Assembly (NCBI GenBank): GCA_017525025.1
Contig: JAFXUJ010000001.1
Span: 186,001-250,000, forward strand
Length of the DNA: 64,000 nucleotides
Direction of reading: 5' to 3'
From: Elusimicrobiaceae bacterium
GTDB lineage: Bacteria; Elusimicrobiota; Elusimicrobia; Elusimicrobiales; Elusimicrobiaceae
Part shown: in pieces, positions 4,789 to 52,811 of the stretch
Numbering within the stretch: position 1 is the first letter of the stretch
Layout: each line of letters opens with the position of its first letter
Position numbers and translations under genes: made by a program
Notes under the pieces: model-generated
Told to the model about the DNA's origin: nothing
The model's input: only the letters and a program-made list of their open reading frames with translations
The model's database searches: none

Positions 4789-4827
4789 TTGTTTTATTTT
4801 TTTTTTTTTGATACACTGGCTTTATCA
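4789..4827 (+). promoter_or_regulatory. Pilin 1 promoter with T13 tract in spacer
   Basis: -35 TTGTTT (4789-4794), 17-bp spacer containing T13 (4797-4809), extended -10 TGA-TACACT (TACACT 4812-4817). The -10 lies inside an inverted repeat TGATA-N9-TATCA (4809 or 4810 to 4827) that is conserved before pilins 2 and 3. The mRNA would start near 4824 with a leader of about 25 nt ending in a Shine-Dalgarno, TAGGAG. Confidence 0.65.
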
Positions 4828-4849
4828 TTTCACTCGTATAGGAGTACGC

Positions 4850-5368
4850 ATGAAAAATAAAATCAGTTGTAAGAAAGGTTTTACCCTAATAGAACTTCTT
4901 GTGGTGGTATTAATTATTGGTATTTTAGCCAGCATTGCACTTCCGCAATACGAAAAGGCTGTGGAAAAATCGCGCGCGAGCGAAGCTATCACCATTCTTA
5001 AAAATCTGCGGGATCAGCAATCCCTGTGCTTTTTAGAAAAAGGGGAAGTCTCCGCCTGTATGCAAGGGGATGAAGATGATAATTTATTTACCAACGCCAG
5101 CATTACTATTTCTGGCGGTGAGGACGACGAATGCAACGACCCTAGATGTGGCCCTTCTACTAAAGATTTTACGTATGCTTTAGATGGTGAGTATATTTAT
5201 GCCACCCGCAAACCATATGGTACTAAATATTATTTCGAAACCACTGCCTTAACAGGGGCTGTAACCGCAGTTAACAGAATTATTTGCCATAACCAAAGCG
5301 AAACCGAGAATTGGTGCAATAAAGCCGGTTTTACAAAACAAGAGGGCAACGTATACGTAAAACCCTAA
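4850..5368 (+). CDS. Type IV pilin-like protein 1
   Basis: A 172-residue type IV pilin or pseudopilin. The leader MKNKISCKKG is cut by prepilin peptidase before the Phe of [17 protein letters not shown]; Glu+5 (the E of LIE) is present, and a hydrophobic helix runs to about residue 30. The polar head after about residue 35 is variable, acidic and rich in Cys (six in the head); the CHN...WC pair near 144-154 could form a disulfide-bound loop. The start is the ATG at 4850 behind TAGGAG; longer upstream frames run through the repeat element and promoter and are rejected. It ends 13 bp from the convergent nuclease gene. Whether it forms a filament, a minor tip subunit or a secretion pseudopilus cannot be told; no assembly ATPase or peptidase is nearby. 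Confidence 0.92.
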   Translation: MKNKISCKKGFTLIELLVVVLIIGILASIALPQYEKAVEKSRASEAITILKNLRDQQSLCFLEKGEVSACMQGDEDDNLFTNASITISGGEDDECNDPRCGPSTKDFTYALDGEYIYATRKPYGTKYYFETTALTGAVTAVNRIICHNQSETENWCNKAGFTKQEGNVYVKP

Positions 5369-5376
5369 TTTTGTGG

Positions 5377-5408
5377 GTTAACTACTGATACTTCTTACTT
5401 TTTGTGCC
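5377..5408. repeat. 32-bp direct repeat, right copy
   Basis: Partner of 4488-4519. It covers the last eight codons and stop of the nuclease gene (minus) plus 5 nt beyond. Bases 5395-5408 also resemble the left tip of the foldback element, so the repeat combines host gene tail and element end. Confidence 0.85.
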
Positions 5409-5888
5409 ACCTTGGTAGGAATAGCCCAAATCGCGTTTGATAAGTTCTTGGGCTAAATCTTGCCCGTCCCCGTTGGTAACGTCGCATAGTAAACGGAAAT
5501 ATTTATCCCGTCCGCAGTCGCTTAACGTAATGGGGTGGACATCTAAAAAATTTTTCGTAAATGCTTTGGCTTTTTGCGCCAAGGCTTTTTCCCGCTCGGT
5601 TTTACCTTTGATTTCCGGGGTGTCTACTCCGCGCACACGCACAGGTACTTTTTCACAATATACCGCCAGCGAACAGTTGAGATTGATTTTGAAGGTGTCT
5701 CCGTCGTAAATGGAAGCAACGGATACATTATTAAAAGCTTGTCCGTCTTCCACTTCGCCCGTTTTGGAAAGGGGCTTGCCTTGTTGTTGCATAAAATACA
5801 AAATCACCGCAACAATTACCGACGCCCAAAACTTTACTTGTTTTTGGGAAGAACTGCGGCGACCCGTTTTGCGTCGTCTAGCGGGCAT
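5382..5888 (-). CDS. Membrane-anchored staphylococcal-nuclease-like protein
   Basis: A 168-residue SNase (thermonuclease) family protein that would cut DNA or RNA outside the cytoplasm. A basic N-terminus (MPARRRKTGRR) is followed by one membrane segment (about 20-33), then the SNase fold. Key residues can be matched to S. aureus nuclease: the metal-binding YDGDTF (Asp62, Asp64), Arg84, Asp89 and Glu92 in VRVRGVDTPE, and Arg132 in RDKYFR. It is the last gene of a three-gene minus operon; its start overlaps the lipid kinase stop by 11 bp. Its final eight codons are part of a 32-bp repeat duplicated at 4488, so the tail GTKSKKYQ may have been reshaped by that event. Confidence 0.9.
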   Translation of the reverse strand: MPARRRKTGRRSSSQKQVKFWASVIVAVILYFMQQQGKPLSKTGEVEDGQAFNNVSVASIYDGDTFKINLNCSLAVYCEKVPVRVRGVDTPEIKGKTEREKALAQKAKAFTKNFLDVHPITLSDCGRDKYFRLLCDVTNGDGQDLAQELIKRDLGYSYQGGTKSKKYQ

Positions 5889-6768
5889 TATTTTGCTCCG
5901 GCAGTAGGATCTTTAACGCCTTGTGCGCTACGGAAATCTCCAGCGAATTTTCCGCTTGGTGGGGTTCGCCGTCTACATGGAAAGGAAAAGTTCCTTCCCG
6001 CATTAAAAGCACGTGATTTATCTGCGTGGTTTGGGTAACTTCAAGGGGGGGCTGTTGGCCCATAAAGAAGCTGGGTAAGGCAACGGCCAATTTCCACTTG
6101 GGTAAATTTTGCACCGCTACCATGTCTAACAATCCGTCATGCAAGCTGGCTTGCGGAGCAATTTTAAAATTACTCCCGTATTGTTTACCGTTTGCAAAAG
6201 TTAAGGTTAGCGGGCAGACGTAAGATTTTTTCTCGGCCACGTGCATTTCAAACGGAAGCGGTTGGTAAGAAAACAGTAATTCGGCACCCAATTTGAAATA
6301 GGGCCATTTGCCGCGCAACCCGTTCTTGCCATGCTCCATGAATTGCCAGGCGATTTCAGCTTCCAAGCCCACACCTGCCACGTTGAGAAAGAGGTGATTG
6401 TTGGCGTGCCCCACATCACATGCCATTACGTTCATGCGGCGTATTTGCTGGACGGCTTTTTTAAAAGAGAGGTCCATGCCGAGTTCCCGGGCAAAACCAT
6501 TGCCGGAACCGGATGGGATAATTCCTAGCGGAGTAAGAGTGTGAACCAGCCCGCGGGCGGCTTCGTTTAACGTGCCGTCTCCGCCTACGGCAATGACCGC
6601 TTTGGCATTGTGGGCGGCGGCTTCGCGCGCCAACTCGGTAGCGTGCCCGGGGCGCTGGGTTAATACTACTTCCGCATCCGGGAAAACGGTCTTAATGCAA
6701 GTGATTTTATCTTGCACGTTAGCTTTATTTTTCCCGCTGGCGGGATTGACAATAAAACGAATGTTCAT
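5878..6768 (-). CDS. Diacylglycerol kinase / YegS-type lipid kinase
   Basis: A 296-residue cytosolic member of the DgkB/YegS/BmrU lipid kinase family, which phosphorylates diacylglycerol or a related lipid with ATP. The catalytic-domain signature VGGDGTLNEAARG is at about residues 61-73 and the glycine-rich PSGSGNGFARELG at 85-97. The C-terminal beta-sandwich contains NGKQYGSNFKIAP and HDGLLDMVAV, which are typical of the family, and the FHVDGEP motif near the end. It is the middle gene of the minus operon: its ATG overlaps the upstream stop as ATGA (6765-6768) and its 3' end overlaps the nuclease start. The lipid substrate is not determinable; DgkB (phospholipid recycling) and YegS (phosphatidylglycerol) are alternatives. 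Confidence 0.92.
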   Translation of the reverse strand: MNIRFIVNPASGKNKANVQDKITCIKTVFPDAEVVLTQRPGHATELAREAAAHNAKAVIAVGGDGTLNEAARGLVHTLTPLGIIPSGSGNGFARELGMDLSFKKAVQQIRRMNVMACDVGHANNHLFLNVAGVGLEAEIAWQFMEHGKNGLRGKWPYFKLGAELLFSYQPLPFEMHVAEKKSYVCPLTLTFANGKQYGSNFKIAPQASLHDGLLDMVAVQNLPKWKLAVALPSFFMGQQPPLEVTQTTQINHVLLMREGTFPFHVDGEPHQAENSLEISVAHKALKILLPEQNNAR

Positions 6769-7106
6769 AGTTTTTTCAATTCTTCCATGGTTGGGTTTTT
6801 AAGTTGCGAAAGAGCTTCGTAAATGCGCTCATTTTTAAGCAAGTTGCAACCGATAGTTCCCACTTTGGCCCCTGCCGATAATACAAACATCATAAGCAGG
6901 ACAAACAACCCGATGTTGGCCAACTGGTTTATATTTTGCATAGGGACCAGCATGTTTCCGTATTGGGTGCGGATGTTCATATCGGTTAATTGCACTACTT
7001 GGGGAACCGGCTGATGATCCGCAAATGCTTTATACATACCGATGAGCGCAAAGAATACGAGTAGCATGCCGATAAAAATAAAGAAATATCCCACAATCTT
7101 GTGCAT
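6765..7106 (-). CDS. Small two-helix membrane protein, unknown
   Basis: 113 residues. The start is the ATG at 7106, with GGAG six to nine bases upstream; the longer frame to 7319 crosses the alaS start and is rejected. There are two membrane helices, at about 3-24 (IVGYFFIFIGMLLVFFALIG) and 62-82 (IGLFVLLMMFVLSAGAKVG), separated by a 35-residue polar loop. The soluble tail ends LKNPTMEELKKL. It heads the operon with the lipid kinase and nuclease and is divergent from alaS. I do not recognise the family. Confidence 0.7.
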   Translation of the reverse strand: MHKIVGYFFIFIGMLLVFFALIGMYKAFADHQPVPQVVQLTDMNIRTQYGNMLVPMQNINQLANIGLFVLLMMFVLSAGAKVGTIGCNLLKNERIYEALSQLKNPTMEELKKL

Positions 7107-7226
7107 AAAGTTCTCCGTGCTTTCTATTATAACAAAACAAGTTCCGCTTCGTACACGCGTTAATCGCGCGGGATAGGCCGCGTATTTGATATACTTTATT
7201 ATATATGTTATTTGCAAGAAGGTTTT

Positions 7227-9827
7227 ATGAAAACAAGTACAGAAATCAGAAATAGCTTTTTCCAATTTTTTAATAGCAAAGGATTGCCGACGGTACCCTC
7301 CAGCTCGCTCGTGCCGCATTCGGACCCGACCCTCCTTTTTACCTCTGCCGGCATGGTGCAGTTTAAAGCTAATTTTTTAGGAATTGATAAGTCGCTCAAA
7401 AATGCTATTTCTTGCCAAAAATGCGTGCGCACGACCGATATTGATAGCGTTGGTTTTACCGAGCGCCATTTAACCTTCTTTGAAATGTTGGGTAATTTTT
7501 CCTTTGGCGATTATTTTAAAAAAGAAGCAATCGCCTGGGCATGGGAATATTTAACCCAAACCCTCGGTTTACCCGCCGATAAATTATATGTGAGTATTTA
7601 CAAAGGCGGAATTGCCCCGCGGGATGAAGAGGCCTACCAAGCGTGGCTTTCTTACGTGCCCAAAGAACGTATTTTTGAGTTGGGCGAAGCCGACAATTTT
7701 TGGACCATGGGCCCCACCGGCCCTTGCGGCCCGTGTAGCGAAATCTATTATGATTTCGGCGACAAAGGGTGCAAAAATCCACATTGTGATATTACGTGTG
7801 ATTGCGGAAGATTTGTGGAAATTTGGAACATTGTATTTGAAAGTTATAACCGCCAAGAAGACGGCACCTTAAAAGCCTTACCGCATAACAACATTGATAC
7901 GGGTATGGGGCTAGAGCGTTTGTGCATGGCTCTGCAAGGGGCCAAAAATGTATTTGGTACAGATTTGTTCACCCCGCTTATTAAGCAAGCCCAACAGGAC
8001 TTACATATTTCCGGTAAAACGAAAGAGCAAGATTCCGCGCTTCGTATCATAGCGGACCACGTACGCAGCTCCAGCTTTCTCATTGCGGAAGGGATTTTGC
8101 CCTCCAATGAAGGCCGCGGTTACATTTTACGGCGCTTAATCCGCCGGGCGGCGCGTTATGCCAAACTCATGGGGAACGACAAGCCCTATTTGTATACCCT
8201 GGTGCCGGTGGTGCAGCGGATATTTGCCGGTCTATACCCGGAAATTGATAAAAATATTACGCATATTCAAGATGTGCTTAAACAAGAAGAAACTACTTTC
8301 TTAAAAACACTCGTTACCGGCGAAGAAAAACTATCGGCCTTGCTCGCGGGCGGTGCCAAAACACTCAGCGGAGAAGATGTATTTCACTTGCATGAAACGT
8401 ATGGTTTCCCGTTGGAATTAACGCAAGAAATCGCCGCTGCGCGGGGCGTAACCGTAGATGTAAAAGGTTATGAAAAAGCCAAAATTTCCGCCCAAGCAAA
8501 AAGTCGCTCTTATGCAGATGAATTTTCCAAAGGCAAAGTGATTGCGCTGCAAAAGTTGGAAAATACGCTGACGGCTACTCAATTTATGGGTTATGAAGAA
8601 CTTTCCTCCCCGGCCCGGGTATTGGCGTTGCTCAATACCCAATTTGAACAAGCAGATTCGGTAACGGACGGCTATGCTATCTTTGACAAAACCCCTTTCT
8701 ATGCCGAATCCGGTGGACAAGTGGCCGACACGGGAACGGTGCTATGCAACGGGCAAGAAATTGCCCAAATAACGGATGTACAAAAGCCGTTGGGCAAAAT
8801 TTATTTGCATAAATTTACCGGTACGCTTGAAAAAGGCCGCGAGGTTACTTTATTGGTAGATGCGCCGCGACGTGCCAGACTGCGGGCTAACCACAGTGCT
8901 ATTCACCTGGTCAATGCCGCGTTGCGCCAAGTTTTCGGGACGACCGTGCACCAAAGCGGTTCGTATGTGTCGCCGGAGCGATTCCGTTTTGATTACACCC
9001 TTTCCAAAGCTCCTAAAGCGGAAGAACTGAATAAAGTATGGGCCATTGCCAATCGGGCCGCGGCGGCCGCCTTACCGGTTACTTGCCAAACGCGTCCGCT
9101 AGCCGATGCCGAAAAATTGGGCGCGGTTACTTTACTCGGCGAAAAATATGCCGATCCGGCCCGTTTCGTGCTGATGGGCGGAGATTTTGATCATCCGGAA
9201 CAAAAGTATAGTTTGGAACTTTGCGGCGGAACACACGTAAAGAACACGGCTGAAGTTATTACCGTGCTGGTTTTAAAAGAAGGTTCCGTGTCGGCAGGGG
9301 TGCGGCGTATTGAAGGAATTGCCGGCCCGGCGGCTTTGGATTATTTGCGGGAAATCAACCGCCAGACCGAAGTGTTGGCTGCCCGGTTGGTAGTGCCGGC
9401 TAAAGATGTGTTTATTCGTGTAAATGCTTTGGTGGATGAACTTAAAGAAGTTAAGAAACGGTATGAAGATTTCCGCCAAAAAACACTTGCGGCCGGTGGG
9501 GTAAATGAAATGTGTGTTACCCTTAAAAACGGCACGGAAGTAATTTTGCGCAAAGCCGACGAAGCGCAACCCAAGGAACTGCGCAACATCGCTGATACCA
9601 TTGCCCAAAAACACAAACAAGGGTTAGTTATTGTAACGTGTGATAAAGACGGGAAACGCTCGTTTGTGGTTAAAATGACCGGCAAGTTGGCCGGGATAGA
9701 TGCCGTTACAGTGGCGAAACAACTGGCCGGGCATTTAAATGGCCGCGCCGGCGGACGGGCAGATTTTGCTCAAGGCGGCGGAGAGGCCAAAGAACCCATG
9801 GAAAAATTATTGGGGGTCCTTTCTTAG
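7227..9827 (+). CDS. alaS: Alanyl-tRNA synthetase
   Basis: An 866-residue class IIc synthetase that charges tRNA-Ala in the cytosol. The start is the ATG at 7227 behind AAGAAGG; an upstream TTG at 7212 lies before that ribosome site. The N-terminal aminoacylation domain begins with the classic segment LFTSAGMVQFK, then shows RHLTFFEMLGNFSFGDYFK and GMGLERL. The editing domain has both zinc-binding motifs, HSAIH (about residue 559) and CGGTH (about 666). The C-terminal C-Ala domain ends with GGRADFAQGGG. Length and order of domains are normal for bacteria. It is followed by a terminator and by the tRNA-Tyr unit. Confidence 0.98.
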   Translation: MKTSTEIRNSFFQFFNSKGLPTVPSSSLVPHSDPTLLFTSAGMVQFKANFLGIDKSLKNAISCQKCVRTTDIDSVGFTERHLTFFEMLGNFSFGDYFKKEAIAWAWEYLTQTLGLPADKLYVSIYKGGIAPRDEEAYQAWLSYVPKERIFELGEADNFWTMGPTGPCGPCSEIYYDFGDKGCKNPHCDITCDCGRFVEIWNIVFESYNRQEDGTLKALPHNNIDTGMGLERLCMALQGAKNVFGTDLFTPLIKQAQQDLHISGKTKEQDSALRIIADHVRSSSFLIAEGILPSNEGRGYILRRLIRRAARYAKLMGNDKPYLYTLVPVVQRIFAGLYPEIDKNITHIQDVLKQEETTFLKTLVTGEEKLSALLAGGAKTLSGEDVFHLHETYGFPLELTQEIAAARGVTVDVKGYEKAKISAQAKSRSYADEFSKGKVIALQKLENTLTATQFMGYEELSSPARVLALLNTQFEQADSVTDGYAIFDKTPFYAESGGQVADTGTVLCNGQEIAQITDVQKPLGKIYLHKFTGTLEKGREVTLLVDAPRRARLRANHSAIHLVNAALRQVFGTTVHQSGSYVSPERFRFDYTLSKAPKAEELNKVWAIANRAAAAALPVTCQTRPLADAEKLGAVTLLGEKYADPARFVLMGGDFDHPEQKYSLELCGGTHVKNTAEVITVLVLKEGSVSAGVRRIEGIAGPAALDYLREINRQTEVLAARLVVPAKDVFIRVNALVDELKEVKKRYEDFRQKTLAAGGVNEMCVTLKNGTEVILRKADEAQPKELRNIADTIAQKHKQGLVIVTCDKDGKRSFVVKMTGKLAGIDAVTVAKQLAGHLNGRAGGRADFAQGGGEAKEPMEKLLGVLS

Positions 9828-9844
9828 CGGAAATTTTTGTTATG

Positions 9845-9875
9845 CAAAGCTCCGGGATAAGCCCGGGGCTTTTTG
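9845..9875 (+). terminator. Rho-independent terminator after alaS
   Basis: Stem 9849-9856 with 9862-9869 (8 bp, one G-U), loop ATAAG, then a T-run. Confidence 0.8.
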
Positions 9876-9897
9876 CTTGTAAATTTCGTTCCCAAAA

Positions 9898-9926
9898 TGA
9901 CAAGACCTCTCTTTTTTTGTTATAAT
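9898..9926 (+). promoter_or_regulatory. Promoter of tRNA-Tyr
   Basis: -35 ATGACA (9898-9903), 17-bp spacer, -10 TATAAT (9921-9926): a near-perfect sigma-70-type promoter about 70 bp before the tRNA. A G+C-rich tract at 9960-9977 (GGGCGAG...) lies in the leader. Confidence 0.8.
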
Positions 9927-9995
9927 ATAACTACCTAGTTGTTTAAGTAATAATTAGGACCGGGGCGAGAGTTCCGGCGTTTTTATGAATTGTTT

Positions 9996-10082
9996 GGTAG
10001 GGTGGCTGAGTGGTCAAAAGCAACGGTCTGTAAAACCGTCGGGCTACGCCCTACATAGGTTCGAATCCTATCCCTACCACCA
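9996..10082 (+). tRNA. tRNA-Tyr (anticodon GTA), CCA encoded
   Basis: Acceptor stem GGTAGGG (9996-10002) with CCCTACC (10072-10078), discriminator A and encoded CCA (10080-10082). The anticodon stem ACGGT/ACCGT encloses loop CTGTAAA, with GTA at 10030-10032. The long variable arm (about 10040-10055) makes it a class II tRNA, as expected for bacterial Tyr. The T arm has GGTTCGAATCC. Confidence 0.96.
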
Positions 10083-10086
10083 CGTT

Positions 10087-10117
10087 AAAACCGCCTTTTG
10101 GCGGTTTTATTTTTTTA
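10087..10117 (+). terminator. Terminator after tRNA-Tyr
   Basis: AAAACCGCC-TTTT-GGCGGTTTT followed by A and a run of seven T. It isolates the single tRNA from mutS. Confidence 0.9.
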
Positions 10118-10133
10118 GAGTCGCTGCGAAAAT

Positions 10134-10151
10134 TGCTAAAATATCACTATG
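10134..10151 (+). promoter_or_regulatory. Extended -10 for a leaderless mutS mRNA
   Basis: TGC-TAAAAT (TAAAAT at 10137-10142) lies 6 nt before the ATG at 10149, with a weak -35 (TTTAGA, 10114-10119, 17-bp spacer). No Shine-Dalgarno is present. Confidence 0.55.
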
Positions 10152-12710
10152 TCTAAAACCTCTTTAACCCCCTTAATGGCTCAGTATTATGAAGTGCGGG
10201 CCAAATATCCCGGAATTATTCTTTTTTTCCGGTTGGGAGATTTTTATGAAATGTTTGATGAACAAGCCAAAGAAGTCAGCGCGCTTTTGGGCTTAACACT
10301 GACGGCCCGTAACGGGATACCCATGTGCGGGATTCCCTATCACGCAGCGAATACGTACATCGTCCGTTTGTTGGGCGCGGGGAAGAAGATAGGTATTTGC
10401 GAACAGACCAGCTCCTCTTGCGATAAAAACACCAAGCTTTTTGAGCGCCGTGTTACGCGGGTAATTACCCCCGGCACGGTGATGGAAGATACCCTTTTGG
10501 ACGCCAACCAGGCTAACTATTTAGTAAGTGTAGATGTTTCCCCTAAAGGGTGGGCGCTATCTTGCGTGGAAGTTTCTACCGGTGAATTTTGGGCCAACCA
10601 AAATGACCAAGACGAATCGCTAACCGGTTTGGCAGCGGCCCTCGCGACTATCAATCCGGCGGAAATCATAGGGGATAAAAAATCACTCGAGACTTTACGA
10701 CAAAAAGTGGTACTTCCCGGCACGTTGACCTTAACCGAGCAAGCTCCGTTTGATGGCGATTATACGACACCGTCCTCGTGGCCGACCGTGGATGCGTGGG
10801 GGGATAAACGCAAGGCCTTGGCCTGTGCTTTGCAAATTGTTAAATACTTAAACGCAACCGAACCGAGTTTTAATACCGTTTTGGCCCCTTCTTACCGCGA
10901 GCTGAAAGACTGCCTGCAAATTGATGAAAATGCTGTTTTGTCCTTAGAACTTGTTAAAAGCCAGGAAGGGGGGCGGCGGGGCAGCCTATGGGCGTTGTTG
11001 GATAAAACCCGCACGGCTATTGGCAGCCGTAAATTAAAAGAATGGATTTTACACCCCTTGATGGATGTGGCCGAAATCATCCAACGTCAAAACTGTGTGG
11101 AAAATTTTACTAAAAATCAAAGTGCCTTGGCCGATCTCAGTGCGCTACTGGAAAATATTTGCGACGTAGAGCGCATTATGACGCGTACGGCTACCGGTAC
11201 GGCTTCCCCACGTGATTTATCCGGCTTACGCCAATCGTTGTTGCATGTAAATGCCTTGGAACAATGGTTCCAAAATTATGGGGAAGTAGCTCCGCATTTG
11301 CGTGATAAATTTGCTGCCCATGTGCAACCGCTTAAAGAAATGGCCCGTTTGTTGTATGAAGCCATTGACGAAAACCCGCCGTTACGCTTATCGGACGGAC
11401 ACGTGATCCGTGCAGGTTATCACGCCGAATTGGACGAGTTGCGTTCGCTAAAACAAAACAGTAATGCGCGGATGGAAGAATTGTGCGCCCAGGAACGAGA
11501 AAAAACCGGCATTACCAATATGAAGGTAGGTTTTAATTCTGTTTTCGGCTATTATTTTGAAGTTTCTAAATCTCATATTGCCAAAGTACCTTACACATTT
11601 GTACGTAAACAAACACTTGTTAATGCCGAACGTTTTATCACGGAAGATTTAAAACAATTAGAAGATAAAATTTTAAATGCCGAACAGCGCATTTTGCGGT
11701 TGGAAAGCACTTTGTTTGATGAAGTGCGTAAAACGCTGTCCACGCAGATTGCTCATGTAAAAGAGTTTGGACAAATCGTATCCGAATTGGATGTATACAT
11801 GTCTTTGGCCCTATGTGCGCTAAAAGATAATTACGTTCGGCCGCTGGTGGATAACGGAGCCGAAATCCATTACACAGGGGGGCGCCACCCCTTGGTGGAA
11901 GCTACTCTCCCGGCTGGCAGTTTTGTGCCTAACTCGTTAGATTTGGGTACCGAACAAACCCAGATTATGCTGATTACCGGCCCTAATATGGGTGGTAAAA
12001 GTGTTTATTTAAAACAAACCGCTATTTTAGTTATTATGGCTCAAATGGGTAGTTTTGTACCGGCCCAACAGGCAAAAGTAGGGTTGGTGGACCGGATTAT
12101 GACGCGTATCGGAGCGCATGATGCACTCAGCCGCGGAAATTCCACTTTCATGGTGGAAATGAACGAAACGGCACACATTTTAACGACCATGACGCCCCGT
12201 AGTCTGATTTTATTGGATGAAGTAGGGCGGGGGACTTCCACCTTTGACGGCATTTCCATTGCTTGGGCCATTGTGGAGTATTTGTATAAACCGCGTGGCG
12301 GAGCGAAAGTGTTATTTGCCACGCACTATTTTGAACTAACGGATTTGGAAAGCAAATACAGCCGTGTACGTAACTTCCATGTGGATGCCAAGGAATATAA
12401 AGACGCCGCCGGGGAAAGCAAACTGGCTTTCTTGTATCAAATTTTGCCGGGCGCGGCAGACCGTTCCTATGGGATTCACGTAGCGGAGATTGCCGGTTTA
12501 CCGGCCGCTTGCACGGTTCGTGCCAAAAAAGTGCTTAAAGATTTGGAAGCTAAAAAAAGTACTAAAATTTCAGTCAAAGAACGGGATATGGTCAAAGATT
12601 TATTTTCTTCTCCTATTGTGGAAGAAATCAAAATGACCGATCCGAACAAACTTACCCCCTTGGCGGCGCTGGAACTTATCGGGGAATGGAAGAAACGCAT
12701 TGATGAATAA
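10149..12710 (+). CDS. mutS: DNA mismatch repair protein MutS
   Basis: An 853-residue mismatch-recognition ATPase. The N-terminal mismatch-binding domain has the Phe-X-Glu motif in RLGDFYEMF. The connector, lever and clamp domains follow, and the C-terminal ABC ATPase has Walker A GPNMGGKSVYLK (about 612) and LLDEVGRGTSTFDG (Walker B region, about 694). ATHYFELT follows. The length matches MutS1. It overlaps mutL, whose ATG at 12703 lies inside the last mutS codons, so the two are translationally coupled. The start has no ribosome-binding site and fits leaderless initiation. Confidence 0.98.
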   Translation: MSKTSLTPLMAQYYEVRAKYPGIILFFRLGDFYEMFDEQAKEVSALLGLTLTARNGIPMCGIPYHAANTYIVRLLGAGKKIGICEQTSSSCDKNTKLFERRVTRVITPGTVMEDTLLDANQANYLVSVDVSPKGWALSCVEVSTGEFWANQNDQDESLTGLAAALATINPAEIIGDKKSLETLRQKVVLPGTLTLTEQAPFDGDYTTPSSWPTVDAWGDKRKALACALQIVKYLNATEPSFNTVLAPSYRELKDCLQIDENAVLSLELVKSQEGGRRGSLWALLDKTRTAIGSRKLKEWILHPLMDVAEIIQRQNCVENFTKNQSALADLSALLENICDVERIMTRTATGTASPRDLSGLRQSLLHVNALEQWFQNYGEVAPHLRDKFAAHVQPLKEMARLLYEAIDENPPLRLSDGHVIRAGYHAELDELRSLKQNSNARMEELCAQEREKTGITNMKVGFNSVFGYYFEVSKSHIAKVPYTFVRKQTLVNAERFITEDLKQLEDKILNAEQRILRLESTLFDEVRKTLSTQIAHVKEFGQIVSELDVYMSLALCALKDNYVRPLVDNGAEIHYTGGRHPLVEATLPAGSFVPNSLDLGTEQTQIMLITGPNMGGKSVYLKQTAILVIMAQMGSFVPAQQAKVGLVDRIMTRIGAHDALSRGNSTFMVEMNETAHILTTMTPRSLILLDEVGRGTSTFDGISIAWAIVEYLYKPRGGAKVLFATHYFELTDLESKYSRVRNFHVDAKEYKDAAGESKLAFLYQILPGAADRSYGIHVAEIAGLPAACTVRAKKVLKDLEAKKSTKISVKERDMVKDLFSSPIVEEIKMTDPNKLTPLAALELIGEWKKRIDE

Positions 12711-14562
12711 AATACAGGTACTGGACGAAAAAACTGCTAGCAAGATAGCCGCCGGAGAGGTAATTGAGCGGCCGTCCGGCGTGCTTAAAGAACTGTTGGA
12801 AAATGCGGTGGACGCAGGCGCTACAAGTTTACGGATAGATATTGAGGGCGCCGGAAAAGAACTGATTCGTATCAACGATAACGGTTGCGGGATGGACGAA
12901 GCCGATTTACAAAATAGCGTCTTGCGGCATGCTACCAGCAAGATAAAATCTTTTGAAGATTTGGAACACCTGCAAACATTTGGCTTTCGCGGAGAAGCAC
13001 TCTATTCCGTGGCGGCCGTTTCACGCATGACGTTAACAAGCTGTAACGGAACGGGTAGCGGTAACCGATTGGAAATTCAAGCCGGCCAAGTGGTCTCTAA
13101 GAGTCCGGCCCCGGCTATCAAAGGAACAACGGTGGAAATCCGTGATTTGTTTTTTAATACTCCGGCGCGTCTTAAATTTTTGAAAAGTGATTCATACGAA
13201 CGGGCTTGCTTGTTTAAAGTAGTGGAAGAAAGTGCCTTAGCCAATTTGTCCGTAGCGTATCACGTGCATATCAACGGACGCGAGGTGTATAATTTACCCG
13301 CCCAACAGGGGCCTTTTGTCCAGGCGGTTACCCAACGAGCTAACGCTATTTTAGGGGAAGAGGTGGCTGAAAGTTTGCGTTATAAATCGTTTGATGAAAA
13401 GCAATTGCATTTGTTCATTACCCCCCCGGACAAATTGGTAACCGTACGAGATATGCAATATGTATTTGTCAACGGACGGCCCATTGATTCCAAAACCATC
13501 CAACAAGCTATTTATAAGGCTTATCAAAATCTCCGTCCCAAAGATCGGCACCCGGCTTTTATCGTATATTTAACGCTTCCTCCCGGTGATTTTGACGTAA
13601 ACATTCATCCGCAAAAACGCGATATTCGTTTCGTGGATGAAAGTCATGTTTTTGCCTTTATCATGCAGGCTGCGCAGCAGATTCTTTCGGAGCAAGCGCG
13701 CCCGGTAGAGGTGCGGGAAACGTCGGTTTCTTTGCCGCCCGTGGCGCAAGAAGCAGCCGAACGGTTATTGTCTGCCGTGTCGCCGAAACAGGCGGCCGAA
13801 ACGTGGCATCACCCTTGGGAAGAAAAATCTACCTTTGAATTACGCGAAACGGCCGAGCCGGCCCAGATAGCCGGTTTTGGGGCAGAAACATTTCAAGTAG
13901 CCGAGGAACGTCCTTTATTAAATCCCCAACCGGGCTCCTCCACTCCCGTTGCGGCCCCTTTGCCCGAAGATAGCCCCGCTTGGTTTGCGGGACCGTATCA
14001 TTATTTAGGGCAGTTACAAAAAACATATCTGGTATTTGAAAATCCGTTGGGTCTAGTACTTATTGACCAGCATGCGGCCCAAGAGCGGGTGCTCTTTGAG
14101 CATTATTTAGATGCTTTTGATAAGCGGGATATAAAAGTGCAAAAGTTATTATTTCCGTTACACGTAGATTTGCCGCCTTCTAATGCGCAAACACTTTTAT
14201 CGTGGAAAGAGTGGCTTAAAACGGCCGGGTTTGAAATAGAATCTTTTTCCGCCCGTACCATTTTAGTGCATACGCGTCCGCATATGATCCGGTTTCAAGA
14301 AGATGATTTAAAAGAATTTATTGTGTCGCTGGCGCAATTGGTGGGGGATCCTGCCAAATCTACAGACGAACTCAAGCGTAAAATGGTTGCCATGCTTGCT
14401 TGCAAAAAAGCCATTAAAGCGCATGACCAAATTTCTGCCGCGGAAGCTGAAGGGTTATTGGAAAATATGAAAAAGTGCAAAGACGGTATGCACTGCCCGC
14501 ACGGAAGGCCGTGCGTGGCCCAGCTGCAGATGAAAGATATTGGCAAATTATTTGGCCGATAA
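12703..14562 (+). CDS. mutL: DNA mismatch repair endonuclease MutL
   Basis: A 619-residue partner of MutS. The N-terminal GHKL ATPase shows ENAVDAGATS, DNGCGMDE and FGFRGEAL; a TTG three bases upstream is less likely than the ATG at 12703. A variable linker covers about 340-420. The C-terminal domain carries the metal-binding endonuclease motif DQHAAQERVLFE (about 455-466), plus ACKKAIKAHD and CPHGRPC (about 597). So this MutL should nick the strand itself, as in most bacteria that lack MutH. A terminator follows directly. Confidence 0.97.
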   Translation: MNKIQVLDEKTASKIAAGEVIERPSGVLKELLENAVDAGATSLRIDIEGAGKELIRINDNGCGMDEADLQNSVLRHATSKIKSFEDLEHLQTFGFRGEALYSVAAVSRMTLTSCNGTGSGNRLEIQAGQVVSKSPAPAIKGTTVEIRDLFFNTPARLKFLKSDSYERACLFKVVEESALANLSVAYHVHINGREVYNLPAQQGPFVQAVTQRANAILGEEVAESLRYKSFDEKQLHLFITPPDKLVTVRDMQYVFVNGRPIDSKTIQQAIYKAYQNLRPKDRHPAFIVYLTLPPGDFDVNIHPQKRDIRFVDESHVFAFIMQAAQQILSEQARPVEVRETSVSLPPVAQEAAERLLSAVSPKQAAETWHHPWEEKSTFELRETAEPAQIAGFGAETFQVAEERPLLNPQPGSSTPVAAPLPEDSPAWFAGPYHYLGQLQKTYLVFENPLGLVLIDQHAAQERVLFEHYLDAFDKRDIKVQKLLFPLHVDLPPSNAQTLLSWKEWLKTAGFEIESFSARTILVHTRPHMIRFQEDDLKEFIVSLAQLVGDPAKSTDELKRKMVAMLACKKAIKAHDQISAAEAEGLLENMKKCKDGMHCPHGRPCVAQLQMKDIGKLFGR

Positions 14563-22695: not shown

Positions 22696-22698
22696 TTT

Positions 22699-24585: not shown

Positions 24586-24624
24586 TTGAATCGTTTTTTT
24601 TTGATACACTGACTTTATCATTTC
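24586..24624 (+). promoter_or_regulatory. Pilin 2 promoter with T9 tract and short spacer
   Basis: Extended -10 TGA-TACACT (TACACT 24605-24610) in the same TGATA-N9-TATCA palindrome as pilin 1. The only -35 candidate is TTGAAT (24586-24591), just 13 bp away; the spacer contains T9 (24594-24602). Four more T would restore 17 bp. The leader ends ATAGGGG before the ATG. Confidence 0.5.
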
Positions 24625-24642: not shown

Positions 24643-25167
24643 ATGAAAAATAAAATCAGTTGTAAAAAAGGTTTTACACTTATAGAACTTCTTGTAGTGG
24701 TACTTATTATTGGTATTTTAGCCAGTATTGCTTTACCGCAATACCAGAAAGCGGTGTTTAAAGCAAGAACTCGCGAAGCCGTAAGTGTATTAAAATCTAT
24801 GCACGACGCTTGCAATGTGCTAGCCTTAAATCAAGGAGCACAAAATTGTTGGAATCGGCTCGGGGATGAGGGTGTAGAAGATTTAGATATTGAAATACCC
24901 GGAAATCTTACCACGTTTCAAGGACGTTCCGCACGACAAACCAGGTATTTTCTCTATACAATCTTCAGCCCCGGTGGTGGTGCGGTGGCGTATTACCGCG
25001 GGCCGGAAGAGATATCGGGTAATTCGGAAGGAAACTTTTCTCTTTGTTTCACTATCAATGATGACGCCCCCCACGATATGATTTGTGGTTACACAGATGA
25101 AGAAAGTGAAAAACTGTGCAGCGTGAGTGGATTTCGAGCAGAAGAGGGCGCAGGGGAATGTTGGTAA
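24643..25167 (+). CDS. Type IV pilin-like protein 2
   Basis: A 174-residue pilin. The leader MKNKISCKKG and the helix [20 protein letters not shown] are identical in protein to pilin 1 and nearly so in DNA. After about residue 40 the head diverges completely; it has a segment DLDIEIPGNLTTFQGR and Cys at several places near the C-terminus (CGY, CSV, CW). It ends 13 bp from the convergent glycerate kinase gene. Preceded by the terminator of the hpt operon, so it must be transcribed from its own promoter. Confidence 0.92.
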   Translation: MKNKISCKKGFTLIELLVVVLIIGILASIALPQYQKAVFKARTREAVSVLKSMHDACNVLALNQGAQNCWNRLGDEGVEDLDIEIPGNLTTFQGRSARQTRYFLYTIFSPGGGAVAYYRGPEEISGNSEGNFSLCFTINDDAPHDMICGYTDEESEKLCSVSGFRAEEGAGECW

Positions 25168-49056: not shown

Positions 49057-49076
49057 GTAGCCGACGAAGGAGTTTT

Positions 49077-49676
49077 ATGAAAGATATTGTTTTTGATTTG
49101 GGCGGAGTGTTAGTAGATTGGAATCCGCGGCATTTGTATAAAAAAGTGTTTACCACCGAAGCCGAAATGGAATGGTTTTTAACCAATGTTTGTACGGCGC
49201 AATGGAACACGCAACAAGATGCCGGACGCCCGTTTGAAGAAGGAATTGAACTCTTAAAAGCCAAATATCCGGAATATACGTTTGCCATTGAATTTTACCG
49301 CTCCCGTTGGGAAGAAATGCTGGGGGGCGTGATAGAAGGCAGCGTGGAAATTTTGCGTAATTTAAAAACGCGCGGCTATCGCGTGTATGCACTGAGCAAT
49401 TGGTCGGCGGAGACGTTTCCGATAGTCCAAAAAAAATACGGTTTTTTCAACGCGTTTGACGGAATGATTATTTCCGGTGAGGAAAAATTAGTTAAGCCGG
49501 ATCCGCAAATCTATGCACGTTTGCTGGAAAAATATAATTTGCGTGCCTCTAATTGTATTTTTATTGATGATAATTCGGCCAATATTTCCAAAGCGGCGGA
49601 TTTGGGGTTTGAAACTATTTTGTTCACGGACCCAGAGGCGTTACACCGCACTTTAAGCAGCCGCGGCATTTTGTAA
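49077..49676 (+). CDS. HAD-superfamily hydrolase (YihX-like)
   Basis: A 199-residue cytosolic haloacid dehalogenase-fold hydrolase. Motif I is IVFDLGGVLVDWNP (nucleophile Asp about 6; the usual second Asp is Gly, as in the YihX and 2-haloacid branches). Motif II is ALSNWS, the Lys is in EEKLVKPDP, and motif III is FIDDNSANI. YihX acts on glucose-1-phosphate; the substrate here is unknown. It follows purA by 20 bp behind AAGGAG. The repeat element begins 1 bp after its stop. Confidence 0.88.
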   Translation: MKDIVFDLGGVLVDWNPRHLYKKVFTTEAEMEWFLTNVCTAQWNTQQDAGRPFEEGIELLKAKYPEYTFAIEFYRSRWEEMLGGVIEGSVEILRNLKTRGYRVYALSNWSAETFPIVQKKYGFFNAFDGMIISGEEKLVKPDPQIYARLLEKYNLRASNCIFIDDNSANISKAADLGFETILFTDPEALHRTLSSRGIL

Positions 49677-49677
49677 A

Positions 49678-49913
49678 GTACTTTTTGTACCGACAAAAAG
49701 TACCAAAAACCTCGCCTCCAATCCCATTGCGGGCCAAACAAAACGGGATGTTTTTCAAACTCACTTCGTTCAAACATGAAAAACATCTTATCCGTTTTGT
49801 GCGGCCCTTCATAAACGGGATAAGTCGGCCTTACATAACAAAGCGGAATTACCTTATTTGATTGCGGCCTTGGCCGCAAATCTTTTGGTACTTTTCTGTT
49901 TGCAGAAAAGTAC
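49678..49913. repeat. Foldback repeat element, copy B (upstream of pilin 3)
   Basis: 236 bp with a perfect 11-bp hairpin at each end: left 49678-49688 with 49693-49703 (loop ACCG), right 49888-49898 with 49903-49913 (loop TTTG). Inside those, GTACCAAAA and TTTTGGTAC are inverted. The central stem is 49731-49735 with 49803-49807, 49738-49746 with 49792-49800, then 49747-49756 with 49778-49787; the 4-nt bulge 49788-49791 and a 21-nt apical loop match copy A. A further palindrome is at 49862-49879. No ORF is credible. It fills the 307-bp gap before pilin 3. Confidence 0.85.
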
Positions 49914-49920
49914 ATACCTC

Positions 49921-49964
49921 TTGTTTTATTTTTTTTTTTTTTTGATACACTGGTTTTATCAGAT
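49921..49964 (+). promoter_or_regulatory. Pilin 3 promoter with T15 tract
   Basis: -35 TTGTTT (49921-49926), 19-bp spacer containing T15 (49929-49943), extended -10 TGA-TACACT (TACACT 49946-49951) in the conserved TGATA-N9-TATCA palindrome. The same parts as pilin 1 but with a spacer two bases longer. Confidence 0.6.
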
Positions 49965-49983
49965 TTCCCGTATAGGAGTACGT

Positions 49984-50490
49984 ATGAAAAATAAAATCAG
50001 TTATAGACGTGGTTTTACCCTTATAGAGCTTTTAGTAGTGGTGCTTATTATTGGAATTTTAGCCAGTATCGCACTCCCTCAGTACCAAAAAGCGGTAACA
50101 AAATCACGTTTTTCGGAGGCTATGAGTAATTTGCGGACAATTTATCAAGCGAATCGGGTTTGTTTTATGGAAAATACAGAGGGATGTTCGCTGGAAGATT
50201 TAAGTGTTAATATTGGCAAAGTTCCAAATCCCTGCCCATTTACTCTGGATGGGGAATGCGCCGCGAGAGAGACGGAACACTTTACGTATCTTGGAGGCGA
50301 TTATGTTCAAGGTGTTTGTGGTTCAGACAGACCGGTAGTTGGAGCGCAATATAAGGACGATGATGTTTGTATTTGTTTTGATGGAGAGGGCTTTGCACTT
50401 GCGTATAATTGGTGTAAAGACGGGACAACAACAGACTATACCAGAATATTAAGAATTCCAGAAGATCCTGACCGTTGTGGATGTTGCTAA
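49984..50490 (+). CDS. Type IV pilin-like protein 3
   Basis: A 168-residue pilin. Leader [10 protein letters not shown], helix [20 protein letters not shown] and [13 protein letters not shown] match the others. The head has ten or so Cys in pairs (CFME...CSLE, CPF...CAA, CICF, CGCC at the end), the richest of the five. The ATG at 49984 with TAGGAG is used; upstream in-frame sequence is promoter. It stops 3 bp from the convergent CorC-like gene. A 45-bp stretch at 50061-50105 is nearly identical to pilin 4. Confidence 0.92.
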
Positions 50491-50493
50491 TTT

Positions 50494-51789
50494 TTATTCC
50501 GCTTTGCTAATCAATACTTCCATCATTTTATGACGGCGAAATTTGCGGGTTTCCAATAAAATACCGTTTTGGCGGATTTTTTCATTTTTGGTCGGTTCAT
50601 GCCCGAGTTTTTGGCTAACCCATTGTTCTACCGTGGTAGCGGGAGTAACATCTGCGGGGACAGATAAATCCAATCGCTCAAAAATATCTGCTATTTTCGC
50701 CGGCGCGCTGGCTGCCAGAGCTTTACCGAAGGGCCGGATGTAGGCGGGGAAAAAGTCATACTCATCTTCAATTTCGCCCACCATTTCTTCAAAAATATCT
50801 TCCAAAGTAACAATGCCGGTAATTTTTGCGTCTTCGGTTACCAGGCAAATGTGTTGTTTGTTTTTCATTAGTTTTTCAAGGGCGGCCGATATGATGGTGT
50901 CCGCCTCCAAGCGCAATATCGGGCGCACAATGCTGCGTGCCGAGGTGGGGCCGCCTTGCGCTATTTTGGTGGAAAGGAAAATATCTTTAAAGTTTAAATA
51001 CCCAATAATACTTTGCGGATCTTGCGCATCAGCACGTACGGGGAAGCGCGTATGCATATCTAAGTGCGCTTTGACGAAAGTATCTGCAATGGAGTCGTCG
51101 GCGTTTAACATATATACTTGTTCCAGCGGAACTTGAATTTCACGTATTTTACGCACGCAAAACTGGGCACTGGAAAGCACAATTTTTTCTTCCGTTTTGC
51201 CGAACAGCCGGTAAGAGGAAGCAATGGCGGCGGCTGTACGCAAATCTTCCATCGCCGTTTTTTGCATTTCTTTAGGATCGGGAACGCGGGAAAATTTACG
51301 TGTTAAAATGCGTACAATGGCTTCCATAATATTTACGATTGGGGCCAACAGAGCGTACATCACCCGCATGCACGGGGATAATTTTAATACCACAAATTCT
51401 TTGTTTTTGATGGCAAATGTTTTAGGCGTAAGTTCGGCAAAAACAATGGTTAAAAAACTTAACGGGAATACCACGCAAATCATGGCAAGTGCATTGGCCG
51501 CATGGCGGGAGAGGTATAAGTGCTCCCGTAGCCAGGGGGCAAAGCGCGCGCCGGCATCCGAGCCGCCAAAAGCAGCCGCAATAGATCCCGCTACGGTAAT
51601 ACCGATTTGGACAGTTGCCAAACTGCCCTCCATGTGGTCTTTCATATAGAGTGCGGCTTCCGCCCCGGAACATTTATTTTGCACTAACAAAGACAACCGC
51701 GTGCGGGAAATAGAGGCCAAGCCCATTTCATACGCGGCGAGTAACGCGTTGGCGGCCAACATAAGCAAAATAATTAAAAGTGTAATCAT
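50494..51789 (-). CDS. CNNM/CorC-family membrane protein with CBS domains
   Basis: A 431-residue protein of the HlyC/CorC (DUF21) family, thought to handle Mg2+ or Co2+. The DUF21 part has hydrophobic helices at about 1-20, 60-80, 100-125 and 140-165 and the motif ELTPKTFAIKN. A CBS pair covers about 215-345 (FPVRADAQDPQSIIGYLNFKD; HICLVTEDAKITGIVTLEDI). The C-terminal CorC_HlyC domain begins after DEYDFFP. Old hemolysin names are not informative. It overlaps the upstream glycosyltransferase gene (ATGA). Confidence 0.9.
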   Translation of the reverse strand: MITLLIILLMLAANALLAAYEMGLASISRTRLSLLVQNKCSGAEAALYMKDHMEGSLATVQIGITVAGSIAAAFGGSDAGARFAPWLREHLYLSRHAANALAMICVVFPLSFLTIVFAELTPKTFAIKNKEFVVLKLSPCMRVMYALLAPIVNIMEAIVRILTRKFSRVPDPKEMQKTAMEDLRTAAAIASSYRLFGKTEEKIVLSSAQFCVRKIREIQVPLEQVYMLNADDSIADTFVKAHLDMHTRFPVRADAQDPQSIIGYLNFKDIFLSTKIAQGGPTSARSIVRPILRLEADTIISAALEKLMKNKQHICLVTEDAKITGIVTLEDIFEEMVGEIEDEYDFFPAYIRPFGKALAASAPAKIADIFERLDLSVPADVTPATTVEQWVSQKLGHEPTKNEKIRQNGILLETRKFRRHKMMEVLISKAE

Positions 51790-52709
51790 AAATTTATCTT
51801 CTCATCTATAAAATAGGCGGGGCGTTGTTTAACTTCGGTAAAAATACGGCTTAAATACTCCCCAATGACGCCCAAAGTAATCAGCTGCACACCGCTAAAA
51901 AATAAAATGGCTACCATAATGGAAGCATACCCGCTGACCGGATTGCCAAAAACAATTTTCTTGTATGCCGTCCAAAAAGCAAATAAGAAAGAGACCACCG
52001 AAACACACAAGCCAAAGTAGGTACACAACTTCAACGGCAGTGTGGTAGAGGCGGTAAGTCCGCCGAGGGCAAAATTCCAAAGTTTCCAATAGCTCCATTT
52101 TGTTTTTCCGGCGGCGCGTTTTTCACGCGTGAACGGCACCGCGGTGTTTTTATATCCCACCCAAGAAAATAACCCCTTAGAAAATCGTTCCCGCTCCGGC
52201 AAGGCTAATAAGGCCGCTACCGCTCGGCGGCTGAGCAAACGGAAATCGCCTGCGTTGTAAGGGATGGGCGTATCGGCCAAGCGGTTATATAATTTATAAA
52301 AAGCCCCGGCCGTCATGCGTTTCAAAAAGGAATCGGCCGTGCGGTCTTTGCGGATGCCGTATACATTGTCAAACCCTTGGTTAAATTTTTCCCAAAGCGT
52401 GGTAATGAGTTCCGGCGGATCTTGTAAGTCCGCGTCCAACAGTACAACGGCTTGCCCCGTGCTGGCCGAAAGCCCTGCCAAGGTGGCACTTTCCTTGCCG
52501 AAGCGGCGCGAGAGGGAAATAACTTTTATTTGTTTATTTTCCGCGGCCCAGTTTTTAAGTAAATTTAAAGAGCCGTCGCAACTGCCGTCATTTACAAAAA
52601 TAATTTCATAATCGTCGGTACACGCTTGCACAACAGGCAACAGCCTCGTGCGCAGTAGCGGCAAGGATTCTTGTTCGTTGTAAACCGGTATAACGACGGA
52701 TAACTGCAT
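51786..52709 (-). CDS. GT2 glycosyltransferase, GtrB/DPM1-like
   Basis: A 307-residue enzyme that would move a sugar from a nucleotide donor to a polyprenyl phosphate. SVVIPVYNEQESL starts the GT-A fold, FVNDGSCDGS and LLDADLQDPPE hold the metal-binding Asp residues (DxD-like), and RKDR is seen near 119. Two C-terminal membrane helices (about 229-249 and 263-285) and the end GEYLSRIFTEVKQRP are typical of GtrB. Likely in surface-glycan or lipid modification; no matching flippase or transferase is adjacent. Confidence 0.92.
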   Translation of the reverse strand: MQLSVVIPVYNEQESLPLLRTRLLPVVQACTDDYEIIFVNDGSCDGSLNLLKNWAAENKQIKVISLSRRFGKESATLAGLSASTGQAVVLLDADLQDPPELITTLWEKFNQGFDNVYGIRKDRTADSFLKRMTAGAFYKLYNRLADTPIPYNAGDFRLLSRRAVAALLALPERERFSKGLFSWVGYKNTAVPFTREKRAAGKTKWSYWKLWNFALGGLTASTTLPLKLCTYFGLCVSVVSFLFAFWTAYKKIVFGNPVSGYASIMVAILFFSGVQLITLGVIGEYLSRIFTEVKQRPAYFIDEKINL

Positions 52710-52782
52710 AAGAGGCTCCTTTTCACTTGTAATAGTATAGCAATTATGCGGCGGGTGTATGAAAAAAATTAGGGTACTCCGC

Positions 52783-52811
52783 TTGAGCCGGTTTTCTTTT
52801 TTTAATAAACT
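52783..52811 (+). promoter_or_regulatory. Pilin 4 promoter with T-rich spacer
   Basis: -35 TTGAGC (52783-52788), 17-bp spacer with T4 and T7 (52797-52803), -10 TAAACT (52806-52811). It lacks the TGATA palindrome of pilins 1-3. The leader ends AAGAGG before the ATG. Confidence 0.6.

What the first reader, a model, noticed from the sequence alone, without database searches (positions are those of the whole stretch)
4789..52811. Pilin promoters with variable T-tracts between -35 and -10: candidate phase variation
Four pilin genes have a poly-T or T-rich tract inside the spacer of a recognisable promoter: T13 (spacer 17 bp) at 4789, T9 (spacer 13) at 24586, T15 (spacer 19) at 49921, T7 plus T4 (spacer 17) at 52783. 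Pilins 1 and 3 share -35 TTGTTT, and pilins 1-3 share extended -10 TGA-TACACT. Since 17 bp is optimal, pilins 1 and 4 would be on, and 2 and 3 weak or off. Length change in such tracts is the known mechanism of fimbrial phase variation in Haemophilus and Neisseria. Here it would act on several dispersed pilin genes at once. The active mutS-mutL nearby would affect tract stability.
Basis: partly seen in the sequence, partly recalled or inferred. Interest (0 to 1): 0.85.

Follow-up and report, generated by a model that had tools for sequence, protein, structure and literature searches.

The report
Poly-T promoters of dispersed pilin genes
In this gut bacterium and most of its relatives, dozens of scattered pilus-protein genes each carry the same promoter containing a run of about twelve Ts, a stretch that looks prone to slippage yet is held near one length, so each gene may have its own easily mutated volume knob; on-off switching itself is not shown.

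Summary
In detail: all four tracts and spacers are as stated (17, 13, 19, 17 bp). The window lies in a 1.55-Mb genome with 60 pilin-type matches. All 15 of its T runs of 10 or more lie in pilin promoters (against 16, 17).

The same promoter (TTGAC-type -35, T run, GNTANNNT -10) has 1,650 matches in 66 genomes of the genus against 20 for the reversed pattern; 43 of 66 genomes have ten or more. Of 75 copies read in G048, 73 precede pilins.

Length is not free: exactly T12 in 194 of 267 promoters from 11 species, 11-13 in 239. Yet it can change fast: two cross-species pairs, 98-99% identical over 400-600 nt around the tract, differ as T10/T12, as does one recent duplicate; five of seven pairs with shared upstream are equal.

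Best reading: a pilin promoter with a length-selected, slippage-prone T12 spacer, so off-length alleles tune single pilins. On/off phase variation is possible but unproven; no strain, read or expression data were reachable. This species has unusually scattered lengths.

The parts
4789..4817 (+). Promoter of pilin 1: TTGTTT, T13 (4797-4809), extended -10 TGA-TACACT; spacer 17
   Evidence: sequence, measured
4850..5368 (+). Pilin 1, 172 aa, N_methyl prepilin motif
   Evidence: PF07963 8.9e-09, over cut-off
24586..24610 (+). Promoter of pilin 2: TTGAAT, T9 (24594-24602), TGA-TACACT; spacer 13
24643..25167 (+). Pilin 2, 174 aa; next to a hydrolase gene. In the 29 relatives' loci held around that gene (about 1.5 kb each side, some cut by contig ends), a pilin lies immediately downstream only in G047
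49921..49951 (+). Promoter of pilin 3: TTGTTT, T15 (49929-49943), TGA-TACACT; spacer 19
49984..50490 (+). Pilin 3, 168 aa
   Evidence: PF07963 8e-09
52783..52811 (+). Promoter of pilin 4: TTGAGC, T4-C-T7, TAAACT; spacer 17; tract interrupted, no TGn
52845..53384 (+). Pilin 4, 179 aa
   Evidence: PF07963 1.1e-09
4736..4809 (+). 74-bp upstream block shared with 49868-49941 (93%), ending in the tract; T13 here, T15 there
49868..49943 (+). Second copy of the shared upstream block, with T15
10149..12710 (+). mutS, full length (context for tract stability)
   Evidence: NF003810 910 bits, cut-off 480; TIGR01070 855 bits, cut-off 641.7
12700..14562 (+). mutL, full length
   Evidence: TIGR00585 482.1 bits, cut-off 180

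Best explanation
The tracts are the spacer of one shared pilin promoter found across the genus: a sigma70-like -35 (TTGAC-type; degraded to TTGTTT/TTGTAA/TTGAGT in this species), a nearly always uninterrupted run of about 12 Ts, and an extended -10 (TGN-TANNNT). Each of tens of dispersed pilin genes carries its own copy. Shown by comparison: the long T run is pilin-specific in this genome, its purity and its length near 12 are maintained in relatives while the rest of the genes diverge, and it can nevertheless differ in length between closely related copies. Inferred: replication slippage makes off-length alleles; a run away from the set length shifts the -35 against the -10 or alters the local DNA shape and so lowers or raises that one pilin, a separate rheostat for each pilin rather than a clean switch; selection brings alleles back towards the set length. 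Not shown: transcription start, effect of length on expression, and variation within a clone or species.
For: Specificity: 15 of 15 T>=10 runs in the genome (against 16, 17); 73 of 75 promoters read in G048 precede pilins. Genus-wide: 1,650 matches in 66 genomes against 20 for the reversed pattern; 59 of 66 have at least one match, 43 have ten or more (recounted). Purity: with only TTGAC and GNTACAAT fixed and the spacer free, 79 of 83 hits in G048 have a T-run spacer and 78 of those 79 are pure (my reading). Set length: 194 of 267 exactly T12 in 11 species; the mode is 12 in each of the nine species and in G048 and G069. Stabilising selection: of the 2,513 G048 pairs binned at 50% identity or more over 300 downstream nt, 2,507 are below 80%, and the upstream 80 nt are 45-73% identical in 39 of the 40 closest pairs printed, while the core varies at few positions. 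Lability: G012/G024 have three other differing columns in the first 401 but T10 against T12; G012/G050 have 10 mismatches in 601 columns but T10 against T12; G069 duplicates are 98% identical over 300 nt but T12 against T10. In all, 7 of 20 pairs with up to 9 differences per 150 nt differ in length (pairs not independent). The promoter call is backed by a class whose ATG sits where +1 is expected, 43 distinct sequences. In this genome 13 of 19 spacers are 16-17 bp and the rest 13, 13, 15, 18, 18, 19 (one -35 re-read by hand).
Against: Of seven close pairs that also share their upstream 40 nt (6 or fewer differences), five have equal lengths. Both cross-species differences involve one genome, G012. 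The G012/G024 pair is 86% over its full 745 columns, because the later coding part diverges. The G069 duplicates also have 24 mismatches and three other one-base gaps in 467 columns, mostly upstream and in the leader. All genomes are consensus assemblies of unknown read type, and long-read homopolymer errors could make T10 or T11 out of T12. In G059, six copies keep T12 although TTGACA lies at 19 bp (two more of that kind have T7 and T14), so -35/-10 spacing alone does not explain the set length. Of the 59 matching genomes ten have only 1-3 matches, the level of the control. No expression data.
Confidence: 0.6

Rival explanations
1. Fixed structural promoter element: the T run is needed for polymerase binding (A/T-tract contact near -18 or DNA shape), its length is held by purifying selection, and off-length alleles are mutational or assembly noise with no adaptive role.
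For: Tight mode at T12 in 11 species; known precedent: an AT-tract upstream of the -10 stimulates transcription through sigma70 R451 (PMC7229825, passages); T12 kept in six G059 copies where TTGACA lies at 19 bp.
Against: 73 of 267 copies are off length, and this species is much more scattered (SD 2.2 over 19; Levene against G048 p 4e-11). A shape role might tolerate some interruptions, yet only 1 of 79 in G048 is not pure. Outside pilin promoters this genome has no T>=10 run, so the element is not a general promoter feature.
Confidence: 0.35
2. True on/off phase variation: slippage in the spacer switches each pilin between on and off, giving combinatorial pilus phenotypes.
For: Location and form match known systems (M. 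[quoted passage not shown] Bordetella fim). Length differences between orthologs and duplicates; spacers 13-19 in this genome and no stop inside any of the 60 pilin matches; mutS/mutL full length.
Against: The narrow genus-wide length distribution is unlike the broad ones of known cases. No within-species data.
Confidence: 0.25
3. The T run is part of a larger palindrome over the -10 and start region that works as an operator or as an RNA lock: read-through transcripts fold and hide the start codon, transcripts from the promoter itself do not.
For: In leaderless-type promoters 43 distinct sequences keep GATAAATTTTG-N8-CAAAATTTATC, followed by A5 or A6 in 38 of 43; 92% of arm cells pair against 26-52% when one arm is shifted. 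In a stem scan against base-shuffled controls, 15 of 23 rows classed leaderless and 25 of 70 short-UTR rows reach p 0.05.
Against: Arms mostly keep one sequence, so covariation is slight: 0.924 paired against 0.907 for permuted arms, reached by 1 of 500 permutations. Absent from the long-UTR class (2 of 76), and no consensus RNA fold there. Some rows are misclassed, and its shuffles keep base composition only. It could explain at most the last 5-6 Ts.
Confidence: 0.1
4. Assembly artefact: the differences in tract length are sequencing or assembly errors.
For: Homopolymers are error-prone; in G077 two tracts carry scaffold Ns at the tract.
Against: The tract itself recurs in dozens of separately assembled genomes; the length mode is the same in assemblies of 2 to about 110 contigs; interrupted variants and different -35s in G000 are sequence differences, not homopolymer errors; mutS, mutL, deoB and the four pilins of the window are full-length frames.
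Confidence: 0.1

Closest known systems
Mycoplasma hyorhinis vlp promoters
   Same: Homopolymeric A tract in the promoter region of every member of a surface-protein family, each member its own transcript (PMC10502178 passage)
   Different: There switching is shown by experiment; here tens of unlinked pilin genes in a different phylum, strong T12 mode, no expression data. That the vlp tract lies between -35 and -10 is recalled
Bordetella fim2/fim3/fimX C-stretch promoters
   Same: Several fimbrial subunit genes each with a homopolymer in the promoter; one base correlates with a 3.8-fold change of fimX transcript (PMC1891110, abstract and passages)
   Different: C tract, Bvg-activated promoter (recalled), few genes, wide length range; not type IV pilins (recalled)
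Helicobacter pylori sabA T-tract rheostat
   Same: T tract whose length gives graded promoter output by slippage (PMC4081817, abstract and passages)
   Different: Tract adjacent to the -35 rather than in the spacer; broad T5-T22 distribution; few loci
AT-tract promoters read by sigma70 R451
   Same: A/T-rich sequence just upstream of the -10 helps polymerase (PMC7229825 passages)
   Different: Not described there as a long homopolymer; spurious promoters in horizontally acquired genes
Haemophilus influenzae fimbrial promoter (van Ham 1993)
   Same: A repeat in a combined promoter region switches fimbriae (title seen as a reference; repeat between -35 and -10 recalled)
   Different: Dinucleotide TA repeats, one divergent pair of genes (recalled)

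Membership tests
Simple-sequence contingency locus (phase-variable promoter) | Repeat longer than chance, placed in the core promoter | tested here: met
   15 of 15 T>=10 runs in the genome are in pilin promoters
Simple-sequence contingency locus (phase-variable promoter) | Length differs between otherwise near-identical copies | tested here: met
   G012/G024, G012/G050, G069 duplicates; 7 of 20 close pairs differ, but 5 of 7 pairs with shared upstream are equal, and assembly error is not excluded
Simple-sequence contingency locus (phase-variable promoter) | Length polymorphic within a species or clone | not testable with these tools
   one genome per species; no reads; two viral-contig scans found nothing
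Simple-sequence contingency locus (phase-variable promoter) | Broad length distribution, as in proven cases | tested here: not met
   T12 in 194 of 267; 239 of 267 within 11-13; broader in G000 (7-15 over 19)
Simple-sequence contingency locus (phase-variable promoter) | Expression changes with tract length, reversibly | not testable with these tools
   no expression data
sigma70-type extended -10 promoter | -35 TTGAC-like, 15-19 bp spacer, TGN-TANNNT | tested here: met
   in G000 the -35 is weaker and 2 of 19 spacers are 13 bp
sigma70-type extended -10 promoter | Transcription start about 7 nt after the -10 | tested here: inconclusive
   ATG lies at the expected +1 in 43 distinct leaderless-type sequences; not mapped
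Type IV pilin (prepilin) | N-terminal methylation motif with hydrophobic helix | tested here: met
   PF07963 over cut-off for all four window proteins
Type IV pilin (prepilin) | Assembled into pili | not tested
   no analysis of the assembly machinery was made

The most novel reading that the evidence does not exclude
A genome-wide bank of independent promoter rheostats: about 20 to 100 unlinked pilin genes per 1-2 Mb genome, each with its own slippage-prone T12 spacer set to a common length, so that every cell carries a slightly different combination of pilin expression levels. Selection resets each tract towards T12, making this a self-centring contingency system rather than a binary switch.
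Probability: 0.35. Interest if true: 0.8.

Novelty: new variant of a known kind. Interest (0 to 1): 0.6.

Why it matters
If length tunes expression, this would be one of the largest sets of homopolymer-tuned promoters acting on a single gene family that I know of (my own knowledge, not a search), in gut bacteria whose pili are little studied. It also gives a natural experiment: tens of copies of one promoter in each of dozens of species, whose T-run length has a clear preferred value, so slippage rate, selection on spacer length and expression can be separated. Even if it is only structural, a pure T12 spacer conserved in a pilin-specific promoter is an unusual promoter design.

Tried and rejected
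Translated leader: in G048 the region after the tract reads as an open frame in many copies, so T12 could have been four Phe codons. Rejected: no codon-position pattern of conservation (0.80, 0.83, 0.84), the sequence before TTG is not conserved, and T11/T13 copies break the frame. RNA structure in the long-UTR class: RNAalifold finds none in 49 sequences.

Terminator for upstream transcription: not favoured, because the sequence before the -35 is not conserved in G048.

Strain-level variation: sought in viral contigs (0 hits) and genome contigs (7 of 11 loci are Elusimicrobium MAGs, all seven tracts before pilins, compared only with each other). No close relative of G000 is held: the best long hydrolase match is 80% over 816 nt.

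Literature: searches in the held library for Elusimicrobium minutum or Elusimicrob* with pilin or type IV pil* (4 papers; 28: 13 papers) listed no title on this promoter; (any two of four terms) had 1,717 hits of which 10 were listed. The E. minutum genome paper is not held; that it reports many pilin genes is only recalled. [quoted passage not shown]

Counting choices: the 267 promoters are 148 typed rows of nine genomes, 75 of 83 matches of G048 and 44 loci of G069 (67 matches). The nine genomes are among those whose rows were printed, with 26 of 59 matches for G062. I left out non-promoter rows (seven for G059; one each for G001, G078 and G050) and, by oversight, one true-looking row of G001; rows of G011, G071, G015 and G044 (1-2 each) were not used. 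One G059 row was replaced by the longer reading of the same place. The 267 include three interrupted tracts, counted by their last run (5, 5, 6). The G000 figure (19) leaves out three degenerate promoters named in the observation check. In one search I fetched mainly off-length loci of G012 and odd ones of G059, so the overall tally printed is not an unbiased distribution. One search read minus-strand loci in the wrong orientation; one search corrects it. One search printed 'pilin hit 75' through an index slip; the right figure is 73 (two None in its last line).
Full report
What is there. The window is G000:C15:186001-250000 of a 1,554,540-base, 17-contig genome. The nearest named DNA found with the same promoter comes from uncultured Elusimicrobium MAGs (7 of 11 loci; all seven tracts stand before pilins). 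A PF07963 search finds 60 matches in the genome at E 0.01, 58 of them over the cut-off. Nineteen of these genes carry the promoter with a T run of 7-15; three more have degenerate forms that I left out (T5, T8 with no -35, T8 broken by a C). The others lack it.

Not chance. A motif scan gives 4 hits in the window against 0.01 expected and 21 in the genome against 0 for the reversed pattern; 18 of the 21 lie before pilins. The strongest test is the whole-genome list of T runs on both strands: all 15 runs of 10 or longer sit in pilin promoters, in the sense direction, and 1 of 9 runs of exactly nine does.

Not just this genome. All 61 genus genomes examined have PF07963 matches, from 22 up to the scoring ceiling of 112, with up to 257 unscored first-look candidates. 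The pattern -35/T run/-10 gives 1,650 matches in 66 genus genomes against 20 for the reversed pattern; 59 genomes have at least one, 43 have ten or more, the highest 102, and ten have only 1-3, which is the level of the control (0-3 per genome). In a wider scan of 149 genomes of the order, 62 match; outside the genus the matches are in one other genus of the family (four genomes with 10-28, two with 1-2) and one hit elsewhere. Seven genus genomes have no match and some with many pilins (for example G011, 238 candidates, 2 matches) almost none, so the promoter is common but not universal. Only in G000, in the loci read from G048 and in other fetched loci did I check that it stands before pilins.

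Length. In G048, 75 promoters were read: T10 1, T11 10, T12 59, T13 5; spacers 14-17 with 57 at 16; 73 of 75 precede pilins. In G069, 44: T10 4, T11 4, T12 35, T13 1. Nine further genomes all have their mode at T12. Together 194 of 267 are exactly 12 and 239 are 11-13. In G048, 2,507 of the 2,513 pairs binned at 50% identity or more over 300 downstream bases are below 80%, and the upstream 80 bases of the 40 closest pairs are 45-73% identical in 39 cases, but the core varies little. With the spacer left free, 79 of 83 TTGAC...GNTACAAT hits have a T-run spacer and one of these is not pure. A slippage-prone homopolymer kept at one length over such divergence implies selection on length and purity; this is inference from the pattern.

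Lability. Near-identical copies show that the run itself changes. G012 and G024: three other differing columns in the first 401, T10 against T12; the coding part diverges after that (86% over 745 columns). G012 and G050: 601 columns, ten mismatches, T10 against T12. G012 and G069: 515 columns, eight mismatches, both T12. G069 duplicates: 98% over 300 nt, T12 against T10, with 24 mismatches and three other one-base gaps in 467 columns that include the upstream flank. G048 duplicates: T11 against T12. Of 20 pairs with up to nine differences in 150 downstream bases, seven differ in length; among the seven that also share the upstream 40 nt, two differ and five do not. In the window itself, pilins 1 and 3 share a 74-bp upstream block at 93% and differ T13/T15. 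Consensus assemblies cannot exclude homopolymer error in single cases.

This species is unusual. Its T runs are more scattered than in G048 (SD 2.2 over 19; Levene p 4e-11). Its spacers are less so: 13 of 19 at 16-17 bp, because shorter or interrupted runs are partly made up by other bases. Six of 19, including window pilins 2 and 3, are off that geometry. Whether these are off, weak or differently tuned is unknown; no pilin match has a stop inside.

Promoter anatomy. In one class the start codon sits at the expected +1 (43 distinct sequences), inside a palindrome GATAAATTTTG-N8-CAAAATTTATC followed by A5 or A6 in 38 of 43, so that the last Ts of the tract form part of its arms. Short-UTR promoters of G048/G059 have a different palindrome over the -10. 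Window pilins 1-3 show a weak form, TGATA-N9-TATCA (sequence). This may be an operator or a lock on read-through RNA; covariation is slight (0.924 against 0.907, 1 of 500 permutations). In G059 six copies keep T12 with TTGACA 19 bp away, one has T7 and one T14, so the run length may be selected for itself and not only as a spacer.

Mechanism. Most likely a pilin-specific sigma70-type promoter whose T12 spacer is both functionally set and slippage-prone, giving each pilin a graded, mutable output. The published cases that it resembles have broad length distributions (PMC1891110 and PMC4081817, passages), which the genus does not show, though this one species leans that way. A purely structural role with noise remains a serious rival (PMC7229825, passages).

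Verdict. Observation confirmed and much larger than reported. Interpretation partly supported. New variant of a known kind.

Noticed in passing
L105, L110, L199, L206, L313, L344-L346 and others (G012, G069, G007, G078): Leaderless-type pilin promoters: ATG at the predicted +1, inside a long palindrome spanning the -10 and codons 2-6, extended by the T tract and an A5-6 run.
   Followed up: partly
L225, L232, L237, L259, L181, L183 (G048, G059): Short-UTR pilin promoters have a palindrome from the -10 (such as GCTACAATTTTT) to just before the RBS (AAAAATTGTAGC), with some matching changes in both arms.
   Followed up: partly
L295-L302 (G059): Promoters with TTGACA 19 bp from the -10 still have exactly T12 in six copies; L296 has T7 and L302 T14.
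   Followed up: partly
L311 against L333 (G012, G021): Pilin genes of two species share an identical promoter, UTR and first part of the coding region apart from the tract, while upstream does not align and the later coding part diverges, which suggests exchange of a 5' module.
   Followed up: no
L260 (G048:C38:50749) and L253: The two of 75 promoters of this type not before a pilin; L260 precedes a small lipoprotein-like ORF.
   Followed up: no
G000 contig ends C10, C13, C15, C2: Several contigs end inside or near pilin genes (matches at C13:25, C10:66659, C15:279342, C2:184477; the last two nearly the same start), so pilin 5' ends may break the assembly.
   Followed up: no
window 4500-4790 and 49670-49920: Repeat material upstream of pilins 1 and 3, including an inverted repeat near GTACTTTTCTG...CAGAAAAGTAC; by eye, similar sequence lies before the pilin at G000:C15:66998.
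   Followed up: partly
genus genomes G011, G076, G004, G042, G047: Very large numbers of prepilin genes: 112 scored (ceiling) and up to 257 first-look candidates in a 1.7-Mb genome; G011 (238 candidates) has almost none of the T-tract promoter.
   Followed up: no
G046:C4:192191, G063:C40:7703: Very long T runs (at least 25, and 24) in two relatives, not examined for what they precede.
   Followed up: no
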